Source of the DNA: Candidatus Acidulodesulfobacterium ferriphilum
GTDB taxonomy: Bacteria; SZUA-79; Acidulodesulfobacterales; Acidulodesulfobacteraceae
Length of the DNA: 64,000 nt
Assembly: GCA_004195035.1 (NCBI GenBank)
Contig: SGBD01000002.1
Location: 124,001-188,000 of the forward strand
Reading direction: 5' to 3'
This document shows positions 23,996 to 27,979 of the stretch, one piece after another (positions within the stretch are counted from its first letter, which is position 1; the number at the start of each line of letters is the position of its first letter). Under the pieces are notes generated by a model. That model did not search any database. It was not told where the DNA came from and worked only from the letters and a program-made list of their open reading frames with translations. Both the position numbers and the translations under genes were made by a program.

Positions 23996-24571
23996 ATGCT
24001 ATTAAGTTCTATTTTAAAAAACGGCGACATGCCCCTTTTAACCGATACGGGCAATAACGCCGGTCAAGGCGTTAACCCGCCCGTGACCGTGAGCTTTGTC
24101 GTTAGCGGCGCGGTTTCCTATTCTAATATACTTATTGCGGATGATAACTCGGTAAATGCCAATCTAATGAAAGCAATTTTGGAATCTACGGGAGAAAGGT
24201 ACAATATTACCATTGTAAACGACGGCAAAGAGGCGCTCGACATGATTTCGTCAAATATAAATTTTGATTTAATTATACTGGATATTATGATGCCGAAGGT
24301 TAACGGTCTTGAAGTTCTAAAAGAATTGCGCAGGGAAGATAACAACATAGAGCCTGCGCAAACCCGCCTTTGTTGCAATTTTCCCGTTATGATTGTGAGC
24401 GCTTTAACGGATCCCCTGACGGTTGCCAGGGGAATTGAAATGGGAGCGAACGATTATATGGTAAAACCGATTTCCAAAGATGTCTTTAAAGCTAAAGTTG
24501 TTTTTTTGATAAATCAAAAAAAGATGTACGACGCACTAATTAACCTAAACCCGCAGAATAACGGCGAATAA
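23996..24571 (+). CDS. Receiver-domain response regulator with a non-standard N-terminal extension
   Basis: A 191-residue protein. The first 42 residues (KNGDMPLLTDTGNNAGQGVN and VSFVVSGAVSYS) are unlike any receiver. A complete receiver follows: NILIADDNSVNANLMKAILE, phospho-acceptor Asp in LIILDIMMPKVNGLEVLKEL, MIVSALTD (Ser/Thr switch) and YMVKPISKDVF (Lys). No DNA-binding output is present. It lies 14 bases after glgA and 61 before the hybrid kinase, so it is a likely partner of that kinase. Confidence 0.85.
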   Translation: MLLSSILKNGDMPLLTDTGNNAGQGVNPPVTVSFVVSGAVSYSNILIADDNSVNANLMKAILESTGERYNITIVNDGKEALDMISSNINFDLIILDIMMPKVNGLEVLKELRREDNNIEPAQTRLCCNFPVMIVSALTDPLTVARGIEMGANDYMVKPISKDVFKAKVVFLINQKKMYDALINLNPQNNGE

Positions 24572-24631
24572 AAATTTTAATATTAAAGGAGATTTTGTTT
24601 TCTGAAGAAAAATAATTTTATAAATGGTGTC

Positions 24632-27562
24632 ATGGCAAAAATCCTGATTTACGGCGGGGGGAATGCCGCCAAGACAATGATCGACATGTTTGAAGGCGAT
24701 AAAAATATCGATATTACCGCCTTGGTTGCCAGGGATTTAAATAAAGAGGGCGCAGTTTTTGCGAAGGAAAGGGGTATTAAATGCTTTTCAAGCATTAAAG
24801 AGGCGCTTAACGGCGGGCTTGACTTTAATATCATATTTAATTTAACAGGAAACCCGCGGTCATCTCTTCCAGAGCTTAAAGAGCTTGCGGACAACGGCGT
24901 AGAGATTATAAATTCCGTCAGCTCTAAGTTAATTTACGACCTTCTTTACGATAGACATAAAAGCCACATCGATAAAGAAATCATAATTAAGCAGTTAAGG
25001 GAGCAAAAAGCATATTTTCAAAATATTCTCGACGATTCTTTCGATATGATTATCGTTACCGATAAACACGGCAAGATTACCGAGTTTAATAAAGGCGGCG
25101 AAAAGATACTTGGATACTCCAAAAAGGAGATAATAGGCGGGAAGGCGAAGGATTTATATGTAAATCCGGAAGAAAGGGACGATATTCTTTCAAAGCTAAA
25201 AAAAGACCATTTCGTTGCAAATTATGAAACCGTCTTGCAAAGAAAAGATAAAAGTCTTGCGGATATATCCCTTACAATATCGCGCATTTTAAATAAAGAC
25301 GGCGATATAATCGGAACAATCGGCATTTCTAAAGATATTACGGAAAAAAAGCTATACGAAGGGGAGCTTAAAGAACTTAACGAAAGCCTTGAAAACAAGG
25401 TTATGGAGAGGACAAAACAGATTGAGGAGAGCAATAAGGAGCTTGCCAGGGCAAACGAGCTTAAATCAAAATTTATCGCAAATATGTCGCACGAACTCAG
25501 AACCCCGCTCAATGCTATCATAGGCTATTCCGACCTTCTGGTGGAGTCGAAAGAGATTACCGATAAACATAAGCAATATATAAATAATATTCTTATTTCG
25601 GGAAAACATTTGCTTCAGCTTATAAACAACATATTAGATATAGCAAAAATCGAGGCGGGAAGATTTTCGTTGGAATACTCCATATTTTCATTAAAGAATG
25701 CGCTTGATGAAGTTATATCTGTTTTAAAATCCCTTGCAGACAAAAAGAGCATATCTCTTAATGTGAATTATGACTGTAGTTATGATTATAAAATATATGC
25801 CGATAGAATAAAATTCAAACAAATAATTTATAACTTATTAAGTAATGCAATCAAATTTTCTTTTGAAAATACCGAAATTAATGTTGCCTGCAAGAATATT
25901 CCGGGGACTTTCGACATTGATGCAGCCGCCAATTTTAAGCCTCGCAACAATAGCGGGTCAGCCGGAGATAAAATATTCGAATATTTCCAGATGGATGTTA
26001 TAAATCACGGTATCGGCATTCCCGACAGCTTTAGAAAAAATATTTTTGAGGAATTTATTCAGGCCGACAACAATTATTCAAGGCAATATGAAGGCACCGG
26101 CCTCGGGCTTTCTTTGACAAAAAAAATAATTGAACTTCACGGCGGACATATACATTTTGAATCCACCCCGAATGAAACCACTAATTTTACATTTATAATT
26201 CCAAATATATTCGATGTTGAAGTAATACCGCTAAAACCTGCCGAACAGGAAGAAGCTCTAATAACAATAGATTCTAAGTCCTTTTTTAGGGATAACAATA
26301 TTAAAAGAAACAAACCGCTGGTTCTTGTTGTGGAAGACGACAGGGCAACTTCGGAACTGTTCACAATCAATCTTGTAAATTCGGGGTATTCCGTTGCACA
26401 TGCGTATGACGGCGTCGAGGCTGTCGAAAAAACTAAATCTTTAAAGCCGTTTGCCGTCCTTCTCGATATAATGATACCGAAAAAAGATGGGTGGGAGATT
26501 CTAAGCGAATTAAAATCGGATAGGGATACAAAAAACATACCTGTAATTATAACAAGCGTAATCGACAATAAAGATCTCGGATTTGCTCTGGGAGCTACCG
26601 ACTACCTCATAAAGCCTATCGACAAAGAAACCTTGATTTATACGCTATCCCAGTTTACTCTTACTTCGAAAAGAAAAAGAAGGCAGGTAAATATTTTATT
26701 GATAGACGATGACCCCATCGTCCATAAAATGATAGAAAAAATCCTTGTCCCCGAAGGCTTTAATTTGCTTCACGCTTACAACGGCGAAGAGGGGCTTAAA
26801 ATGGCGATAGAACTTAAACCGGATTTAATCCTCTTAGATTTAATTATGCCGGATATTGACGGATTTGAAGTTGCCGAGAACATTAAAAAGCACCCTATCT
26901 CTGCTCAAATTCCTATTTTTATTATAACTTCAAAGGATCTGTCCGTCGAGGAAAGATTAAGGCTTTCCGGCAACATCGAAAGAATAATCGGCAAAAAAGC
27001 CTTTTCAGCCGAGGAACTCAGCCGTTCGATAAGGGAACTGGAACTTATATATCCGCAAAAGGCGGGACTTTTTGATGAAATTACGGGACTGTTAGACCGT
27101 AACTACTTTAATATAAGGCTTGCTCAGGAGATTAGCAGGGCTAAAAGGTATAATATAGCATTCAGCGTGGTCTTTTTCGATATCGATAATTTTAAAGAGT
27201 ATGCGGGGATAGTCGGTAATTTTCATTCCGATATAGCCCTTAAAAAGATTGCGGACACTCTAAAAAAATATTTAAGGGGTTCCGATGTAGTGGCGAGATT
27301 CGGATATGATGAATTTGCCCTTATACTTAACAATACTTTGAAAGAACCGGCAGCTTATGTTGCAAATCGATTTTGCTCCATTATCAGAGACTACCCGTTT
27401 TATAAAGAAGAGGAACTTAAGTCGAAAAAATTGACGGCTTCGTTTGTTGTTGCCTCGTTTCCGAAAGACGGAGATTCTCCTGAGGAACTTATTTCTAAAA
27501 TCTACAATAGATTGTGCGATGTTAAAAATTCCGGCGGCGGCGCGGTAATCGAGGTAAGCTAA
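24632..27562 (+). CDS. Rossmann-PAS-histidine kinase-REC-REC-GGDEF hybrid protein
   Basis: A 976-residue cytoplasmic protein, no TM segments seen. Residues 1-110 are a Rossmann-like domain (ILIYGGGNAAKTMIDMFEGD, GxGxxA pattern, then FNIIFNLTGNPRSSLPELKE). A PAS domain follows (ILDDSFDMIIVTDKHGKITE), a coiled coil, HisKA (FIANMSHELRTPLNAIIGYS with His) and HATPase. In the HATPase, INHGIGIPDS has Asn where the G1 box normally has Asp; the GTGLGLSLTKKI box is intact. Two receivers follow (LVVEDDRATSELF, LLIDDDPIVHKMIE). The C-terminal GGDEF domain has RFGYDEFALIL, so a likely inactive site. It could sense nucleotide or redox state. ATG 24632 has only a poorly placed AAAGGAG 41 bases upstream. 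Confidence 0.88.
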   Translation: MAKILIYGGGNAAKTMIDMFEGDKNIDITALVARDLNKEGAVFAKERGIKCFSSIKEALNGGLDFNIIFNLTGNPRSSLPELKELADNGVEIINSVSSKLIYDLLYDRHKSHIDKEIIIKQLREQKAYFQNILDDSFDMIIVTDKHGKITEFNKGGEKILGYSKKEIIGGKAKDLYVNPEERDDILSKLKKDHFVANYETVLQRKDKSLADISLTISRILNKDGDIIGTIGISKDITEKKLYEGELKELNESLENKVMERTKQIEESNKELARANELKSKFIANMSHELRTPLNAIIGYSDLLVESKEITDKHKQYINNILISGKHLLQLINNILDIAKIEAGRFSLEYSIFSLKNALDEVISVLKSLADKKSISLNVNYDCSYDYKIYADRIKFKQIIYNLLSNAIKFSFENTEINVACKNIPGTFDIDAAANFKPRNNSGSAGDKIFEYFQMDVINHGIGIPDSFRKNIFEEFIQADNNYSRQYEGTGLGLSLTKKIIELHGGHIHFESTPNETTNFTFIIPNIFDVEVIPLKPAEQEEALITIDSKSFFRDNNIKRNKPLVLVVEDDRATSELFTINLVNSGYSVAHAYDGVEAVEKTKSLKPFAVLLDIMIPKKDGWEILSELKSDRDTKNIPVIITSVIDNKDLGFALGATDYLIKPIDKETLIYTLSQFTLTSKRKRRQVNILLIDDDPIVHKMIEKILVPEGFNLLHAYNGEEGLKMAIELKPDLILLDLIMPDIDGFEVAENIKKHPISAQIPIFIITSKDLSVEERLRLSGNIERIIGKKAFSAEELSRSIRELELIYPQKAGLFDEITGLLDRNYFNIRLAQEISRAKRYNIAFSVVFFDIDNFKEYAGIVGNFHSDIALKKIADTLKKYLRGSDVVARFGYDEFALILNNTLKEPAAYVANRFCSIIRDYPFYKEEELKSKKLTASFVVASFPKDGDSPEELISKIYNRLCDVKNSGGGAVIEVS

Positions 27563-27589: not shown

Positions 27590-27979
27590 ATGGCTTCAAA
27601 AAATAACAGGCAACGCAACAAGATTCTTATTGTCGAAGACAATAGGATTAATATGGATCTTTTAATAGCGCTTCTTGAGCCTTTTAATTTTAACATAATA
27701 ACGGCGCTCGATGGATACGAGGCTATAAAAAAAGCCGATGAAAATCCCGGACTGTCTTTAATTTTACTTGACATAGGTCTTCCGGGAATAGACGGCATCG
27801 AAGTATTTAAAAGGCTTAAATGTACGGACGCAGCGAAAAATGTGCCGGTTATTGCCGTTACGGCGCACGCTATGGCAGGCAACCGGGAACACCTTTTGTC
27901 GTTAGGTTTTAACGATTTTGTCGAAAAACCGATCGACAAAAACATACTTTATGAAAAAATTAGAGGTTATATAAAATAA
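27590..27979 (+). CDS. Single-domain response regulator (DivK/CheY type)
   Basis: A 129-residue receiver: KILIVEDNRINMDLLIALLE, Asp in LILLDIGLPGIDGIEVFKRL, PVIAVTAHAMAGNREHLLSL (Thr) and FVEKPIDKNIL (Lys). AHAMAGD-like sequence and the lone domain resemble DivK and hybrid-kinase phosphotransfer partners. It is 27 bases after the hybrid kinase gene and likely in one unit with it. Confidence 0.88.
   Translation: MASKNNRQRNKILIVEDNRINMDLLIALLEPFNFNIITALDGYEAIKKADENPGLSLILLDIGLPGIDGIEVFKRLKCTDAAKNVPVIAVTAHAMAGNREHLLSLGFNDFVEKPIDKNILYEKIRGYIK

What the first reader, a model, noticed from the sequence alone, without database searches (positions are those of the whole stretch)
24632..27562. Histidine kinase fused to an N-terminal Rossmann-like domain, with altered ATP and GGDEF sites
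The first 110 residues carry GGGNAAK and look like a dinucleotide-binding fold, ahead of PAS-HisKA-HATPase-REC-REC-GGDEF. The HATPase G1 box reads NHGIGIP instead of DxGxGIP, and the GGDEF site reads GYDEF. It may sense NAD(P) or a nucleotide ligand, and may be a non-classical kinase, phosphatase or scaffold. Two lone receivers flank it (23996 and 27590).
Basis: partly seen in the sequence, partly recalled or inferred. Interest (0 to 1): 0.6.

Follow-up and report, generated by a model that had tools for sequence, protein, structure and literature searches.

The report
Redox-and-c-di-GMP hybrid sensor kinase
This gene of an uncultured acid-loving bacterium encodes a kinase that joins a probable NAD(P)-sensing domain at one end to a switched-off diguanylate cyclase, probably used to sense the messenger c-di-GMP, at the other; it belongs to a widespread, apparently undescribed family of bacterial signalling proteins.

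Summary
The gene encodes Rossmann–PAS–HisKA–HATPase–REC–REC–GGDEF with receivers on both sides. The N-terminal domain models confidently as a Rossmann fold; its best fold matches are NAD(P)-binding domains of dehydrogenases. G1 Asn and GYDEF are not sequencing errors: both are fixed in all 22 sequences from the host family (Candidatus Acidulodesulfobacterales).

The protein belongs to a much wider kinase family (99 of 299 genomes around a distant relative match strongly). Across 54 sequences the cyclase motif is broken in all, in different ways, while the c-di-GMP inhibitory site (RxxD) is intact in all. Partner genes recur across unrelated families: a REC–HD-GYP phosphodiesterase upstream, a DivK/PleD-like receiver downstream. 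In the window the HD-GYP part of the upstream partner is lost.

Best reading: an active hybrid kinase taking a nucleotide-cofactor signal at one end and c-di-GMP at the other, feeding a c-di-GMP phosphorelay. It works like Myxococcus SgmT and Caulobacter PleD/DivK but is neither. Asn at G1 does not imply a dead kinase (VanS, ThkA). Host-lineage novelties are the G1 change and loss of the NAD-selective acid (D/E in 32/32 others, A/S-Arg in 22/22 here), predicting NADP(H). Ligand binding is inferred, not shown.

The parts
24632..27562 (+). Rossmann-PAS-HisKA-HATPase-REC-REC-GGDEF* hybrid histidine kinase, 976 aa (start may be CTG at 24602)
   Evidence: ORF; Pfam; orthologs; leader
24635..24913 (+). 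N-terminal Rossmann domain, residues 2-94, followed by a helix (98-122) leading to PAS
   Evidence: AF2 block pLDDT 86-96 over residues 1-90; Foldseek hits to NAD(P) dehydrogenases; profile match to acetaldehyde dehydrogenase E 1e-7
24653..24673 (+). GGGNAAK, dinucleotide-binding glycine turn, residues 8-14
   Evidence: G8 in 54/54 and G10 in 48/54 family sequences
24728..24733 (+). Ala33-Arg34 at the end of strand 2, where NAD enzymes carry Asp/Glu; predicted NADP preference
   Evidence: A/S then R in 22/22 host-family sequences, D/E in 32/32 others
25043..25345 (+). PAS domain, residues 138-238
   Evidence: Pfam PAS_9 1.3e-17
25463..25660 (+). HisKA, phospho-acceptor His287 at 25490-25492
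   Evidence: Pfam 1.5e-21; His in 54/54
25802..26203 (+). HATPase_c domain
   Evidence: Pfam 1.2e-21
26003..26017 (+). G1 box NHGIG, Asn458 in place of Asp
   Evidence: Asn 22/22 host family, Asp 32/32 others; Asp in the 13 paralogous HATPases read correctly
26321..26653 (+). REC1, acceptor Asp612 at 26465-26467
   Evidence: Response_reg; Asp in 54/54
26693..27022 (+). REC2, acceptor Asp736 at 26837-26839
   Evidence: Response_reg; Asp in 53/54
27071..27538 (+). Degenerate GGDEF domain (GYDEF at 27302-27316)
   Evidence: Pfam 1.8e-29; canonical GG[DE]EF in 0/54 family members
27275..27286 (+). Primary I-site RGSD (R882, D885); secondary I-site Arg913 at 27368-27370
   Evidence: R and D in 54/54, Arg913 in 53/54
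23996..24571 (+). Lone REC, 191 aa; in basal host-family genera the gene here encodes REC-HD-GYP
   Evidence: synteny; relatives
27590..27979 (+). Lone DivK/PleD-like receiver, conserved downstream partner
   Evidence: PDB hits PleD then DivK; in the same place in the host-family loci read and in 14 of 32 distant loci

Best explanation
A soluble hybrid histidine kinase with two small-molecule inputs. The N-terminal Rossmann domain binds a pyridine dinucleotide, probably NADP(H) in this lineage and NAD(H) in the wider family, and with the PAS domain sets kinase activity through the connecting helix (ligand inferred; fold and conserved motif shown). The kinase phosphorylates its own REC1/REC2 and, in trans, the DivK-like receiver downstream and the receiver upstream, which in relatives carries a c-di-GMP-degrading HD-GYP domain (gene linkage shown, phosphotransfer inferred). 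The C-terminal REC-REC-GGDEF part resembles PleD but can no longer make c-di-GMP; it most likely binds c-di-GMP at its invariant I-site and feeds that level back on the kinase or its location (I-site conservation shown, binding inferred). Asn at G1 probably leaves an active kinase with altered nucleotide affinity or preference.
For: Rossmann model with confident core; top Foldseek hits are mostly NAD(P)-binding dehydrogenases; profile match to acetaldehyde dehydrogenase NAD domain E 1e-7; a homologous domain passes Pfam's GFO_IDH_MocA cut-off (34.8 vs 24 bits) and fronts many different outputs. H-box 54/54, REC1 Asp 54/54, REC2 Asp 53/54. No intact GG[DE]EF in 54 sequences, yet I-site R and D 54/54 and I' Arg 53/54; guanine-contacting Asn 6/54. 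REC-HD-GYP next to the kinase in host-family genera and in distant families; DivK-like receiver downstream, overlapping in f208. Best sequence and fold hit of the C-terminal half is PleD. SgmT shows a hybrid kinase with broken A-site and intact I-site binding c-di-GMP.
Against: No binding or activity data. The window's own Rossmann domain is below the Pfam cut-off (18.9 vs 24 bits). RxxD is also kept in 23 of 25 canonical cyclase paralogs (read), so its retention is not by itself proof of a receptor role. In SgmT, c-di-GMP did not change autophosphorylation or phosphotransfer and affected location only. Degenerate AGDEF and SGDEF cyclases can be active. The window lacks the HD-GYP partner. The C-terminal AF2 model is weak (pLDDT 68).
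Confidence: 0.52

Rival explanations
1. The N-terminal domain does not bind a cofactor; it is a dimerisation or docking module derived from a Rossmann fold.
For: Five of 32 distant members have N and one D instead of the second Gly of GxG; one host genus (g2) carries a 20-50 residue Asn-rich insert between strand 4/helix D and strand 5.
Against: First Gly 54/54, second Gly in all 22 host-family sequences and 26/32 others; N[LV]TG motif after strand 4 kept in nearly all; clear NAD-type acid in 32/32 distant kinases; the domain fronts many unrelated outputs, as sensor domains do.
Confidence: 0.25
2. Residual or new enzymatic function of the GGDEF domain: GYDEF still makes c-di-GMP, or the pocket binds another guanine nucleotide such as GTP or (p)ppGpp.
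For: Metal Asp (D850), D893 and E894 retained; AGDEF/SGDEF cyclases can be active; PDB lists PleD complexes with (p)ppGpp; genus g2 keeps the guanine Asn.
Against: Bulky Tyr/Ile/Phe at the second Gly, or Ala/Ser/Lys/Thr at the catalytic Glu, in different branches; guanine-contact Asn lost in 48/54.
Confidence: 0.2
3. Pseudokinase or phosphatase scaffold: Asn at G1 abolishes ATP use.
For: Asn fixed in one clade only; VanS with Asn binds ATP weakly (PMC10017428).
Against: His, N-box and receiver Asp kept; VanS autophosphorylates; ThkA Asn hydrogen-bonds adenine; a B. anthracis kinase with this Asn prefers GTP (as cited in PMC10017428).
Confidence: 0.15

Closest known systems
SgmT of Myxococcus xanthus (GAF-HK-REC-GGDEF; PMC3509222)
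   Same: Cytoplasmic hybrid kinase with a C-terminal GGDEF domain, broken A-site, intact RxxD I-site and secondary Arg
   Different: SgmT has a GAF input and one receiver, no Rossmann domain; A-site GGGVF rather than GYDEF; its partner is the DNA-binding regulator DigR
PleD / DivK module of Caulobacter
   Same: REC-REC-GGDEF order; adjacent single-domain DivK-like receiver; PleD is the top PDB hit for the C-terminal half, PleD then DivK for the lone receiver
   Different: Here fused behind its own kinase; both receivers keep the acceptor Asp; cyclase site broken
PopA-type c-di-GMP receptors
   Same: GGDEF domain with degenerate A-site and intact I-site (as described in PMC3509222)
   Different: PopA is a response regulator, not a kinase
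Acetaldehyde dehydrogenase (acylating) and Gfo/Idh/MocA NAD(P)-binding domains
   Same: Rossmann fold, glycine turn, sequence-profile similarity
   Different: No catalytic domain; fused to signalling domains; in this lineage the NAD-selective acid is replaced by Ala/Ser followed by Arg
VanS, ThkA and a B. anthracis GTP-preferring sporulation kinase
   Same: Asn instead of Asp at the first G1 position
   Different: Other kinase families; VanS also lacks the second G1 glycine, which is present here

Membership tests
SgmT-type c-di-GMP-receptor hybrid kinase | Degenerate A-site with intact RxxD I-site in a C-terminal GGDEF domain | tested here: met
   A-site canonical 0/54, RxxD 54/54
SgmT-type c-di-GMP-receptor hybrid kinase | N-terminal GAF sensor, single receiver | tested here: not met
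   Rossmann + PAS, two receivers
SgmT-type c-di-GMP-receptor hybrid kinase | c-di-GMP binding | not testable with these tools
   needs protein
PleD diguanylate cyclase | REC-REC-GGDEF order | tested here: met
PleD diguanylate cyclase | Intact GG(D/E)EF active site | tested here: not met
   GYDEF; guanine-contact Asn replaced by Ala
NAD(P)-binding Rossmann domain | Rossmann fold with glycine turn | tested here: met
NAD(P)-binding Rossmann domain | Curated Pfam GFO_IDH_MocA threshold | tested here: not met
   18.9 vs 24 bits for the window; homolog L091 passes with 34.8
NAD(P)-binding Rossmann domain | Acidic residue at end of strand 2 (NAD) or small residue + Arg (NADP) | tested here: met
   A/S-R 22/22 in host family, D/E 32/32 elsewhere
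NAD(P)-binding Rossmann domain | Ligand binding | not testable with these tools
   needs protein
Active histidine kinase | H-box His, N-box Asn, glycine-rich lid | tested here: met
Active histidine kinase | Asp at G1 | tested here: not met
   Asn458; known active kinases share this

The most novel reading that the evidence does not exclude
One polypeptide integrates cellular redox (NADP(H) state) and c-di-GMP level to run a phosphorelay. In the host order both purine sites shifted on one branch: the Rossmann site from NAD to NADP and the kinase site from ATP towards another affinity or GTP. The Rossmann input module itself would be an undescribed cytoplasmic sensor domain spread over kinases, sigma-54 activators and cyclases.
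Probability: 0.25. Interest if true: 0.75.

Novelty: new variant of a known kind. Interest (0 to 1): 0.55.

Why it matters
If the Rossmann module binds NAD(P)(H), it gives a direct, testable link between redox state and two-component and c-di-GMP signalling in many uncultured bacteria, and a natural pair (D/E versus A/S-R) for testing cofactor specificity. It also gives a large, deeply diverged set of kinases with broken cyclase sites and intact I-sites, in which SgmT-like c-di-GMP reception could be tested as a general principle.

Tried and rejected
Sequencing error or pseudogene: rejected, both variants are fixed in the clade. A gene split in G005 (L044): looks like an assembly gap, since the upstream half runs into N, so not a natural fission. 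Plasmid search for the N-terminal domain: no match. NCBIfam: no model over its cut-off for this protein in the rows shown. Literature searches for a Rossmann input domain on histidine kinases found nothing relevant, and 'GYDEF' nothing relevant; only open-licence papers are held. The paper on the GTP-preferring kinase is not held and is cited through PMC10017428. A regex census of G1 residues misread two loci as Lys; those were discarded. Naming the distant host genomes was not possible (G handles are anonymous).

Full report
What is there. ORF 24632-27562 (+) encodes 976 residues with PAS, HisKA, HATPase_c, two receivers and GGDEF by Pfam; the first ~110 residues give only sub-threshold hits to GFO_IDH_MocA and CoA_binding. 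Lone receivers lie on either side. The host is an uncultured member of Candidatus Acidulodesulfobacterales: the best genome-collection matches carry titles such as SZUA-79, Candidatus Acididesulfobacter diazotrophicus and Deltaproteobacteria bacterium FK_Sedi_B_Bin.167.

Not an error. Of 30 genomes of the host family (own included) have the gene; one missing genome (G007) is listed as 100% complete, the others are drafts or smaller assemblies. It sits in a conserved neighbourhood with mqnC and dksA upstream, glgA in some genera, a receiver before it, and a receiver and thioesterase after it, with dnaJ further on in several (Pfam of neighbours). In all 22 sequences G1 starts with Asn, the cyclase motif is GYDEF and the I-site is RGSD. 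In four host-family genomes the 13 other HATPases that could be read have Asp, and the cyclase paralogs read GGDEF/GGEEF, with one GCDEF.

The N-terminal domain. AlphaFold2 with 20 relatives gives a five-stranded alpha/beta fold, mean pLDDT 82.5 and block means of 86-96 over residues 1-90. The leading Foldseek hits in the PDB are mostly NAD(P)-binding dehydrogenases: acylating acetaldehyde dehydrogenases and the Gfo/Idh/MocA family. A profile of 16 diverse copies matches acetaldehyde dehydrogenase at E 1e-7, and one homolog passes the Pfam GFO_IDH_MocA threshold. The domain is a reused signalling module: it fronts sigma-54 activators, GAF-GGDEF proteins, GGDEF-HD-GYP proteins, HisKA-REC-REC kinases, multi-PAS kinases and short kinases. 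It was found at E<=0.001 in 59 of 386 genomes around the host (the weakest of these may be ordinary dehydrogenases) and at E<=1e-8 in 122 of 299 genomes around a distant relative.

The wider kinase family. A distant homolog (L098) has Rossmann-GAF-PAS-HK-REC-REC-GGDEF; searching with it gives E<=1e-100 in 99 of 299 genomes (some of those matches cover only the kinase-receiver part). I aligned 22 host-family and 32 distant sequences. The tree puts the host family in one clade (SH-aLRT 100). Counts: phospho-acceptor His 54/54; REC1 Asp 54/54; REC2 Asp 53/54; primary I-site Arg and Asp 54/54; secondary I-site Arg 53/54; intact GG[DE]EF 0/54, broken differently by branch (GYDEF; GIDEF/GFDEF; GGDAF/GGDSF and others); guanine-contacting Asn 6/54. 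So catalysis was lost or abandoned along different routes while the c-di-GMP inhibitory site was kept. Caution: canonical paralogs also mostly keep RxxD (23 of 25, read).

Two lineage-specific changes. At the end of Rossmann strand 2 the acid that selects NAD is D or E in all 32 distant kinases, but Ala or Ser followed by an invariant Arg in all 22 host-family sequences; by general knowledge of Rossmann enzymes this favours NADP(H). Similar residue + Arg pairs occur in three unrelated Rossmann-GAF-GGDEF proteins (L099, L101, L103). At G1 the Asp of 32/32 distant kinases is Asn in 22/22 here. Published work reports Asn at G1 in VanSA/VanSC (weak ATP binding), an Asn-adenine hydrogen bond in ThkA, and a GTP-preferring B. 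anthracis kinase with the same change (PMC10017428). A dead kinase is therefore not the default reading.

Partners. In 14 of 32 distant loci a DivK-like receiver follows the kinase, overlapping it by about 10-45 bases in most, as the 27590 gene follows it here; its closest solved relatives are PleD and DivK. In most of the other distant loci, and in host genera g2 and g4, the upstream neighbour is REC-HD-GYP, a c-di-GMP phosphodiesterase architecture (in the distant set five were read in full and two scanned with Pfam, the rest are judged by size and position). In the window's genus and in g3 and g6 the corresponding gene keeps only the receiver. The module thus points to c-di-GMP from three sides: degenerate cyclase, phosphodiesterase partner and PleD/DivK likeness.

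Mechanism. Shown: domain order, Rossmann fold prediction, invariant I-site, broken A-site, conserved partners, clade-specific residue changes. Inferred: dinucleotide binding, NADP preference, c-di-GMP binding, phosphotransfer to the partners. [quoted passage not shown] there binding changed localisation, not phosphorylation (PMC3509222). The PleD-like C-terminal half is supported by sequence and by Foldseek on a low-confidence model.

Verdict. A real, conserved and apparently undescribed architecture built of known parts: a new variant of c-di-GMP-receptor hybrid kinases with a Rossmann input. Interest is moderate to good, mainly for the testable cofactor switch and the breadth of the Rossmann input module.

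Noticed in passing
23996-24571: Upstream lone receiver appears to be a truncated REC-HD-GYP gene: basal host-family genera keep the HD-GYP domain, the window's genus and sister genera do not.
   Followed up: yes
24585-24631: Shine-Dalgarno-like AAAGGAG with an in-frame CTG at 24602 suggests the kinase may start 10 codons before the ATG.
   Followed up: partly
L046-L051: In one genus (g2) the Rossmann domain carries a variable 20-50 residue Asn-rich insert before its last strand.
   Followed up: no
L099, L101, L103: Rossmann-GAF-GGDEF proteins with Arg-type strand-2 ends and intact GGEEF: possible NADP-controlled cyclases.
   Followed up: no
one search hits with open frames of about 132-157 aa (e.g. 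G496:C192:353-679): Apparent stand-alone copies of the Rossmann module in some genomes.
   Followed up: no
G007: A genome of the host family listed as 100% complete lacks the kinase; only a weak partial hit was found there and none.
   Followed up: no
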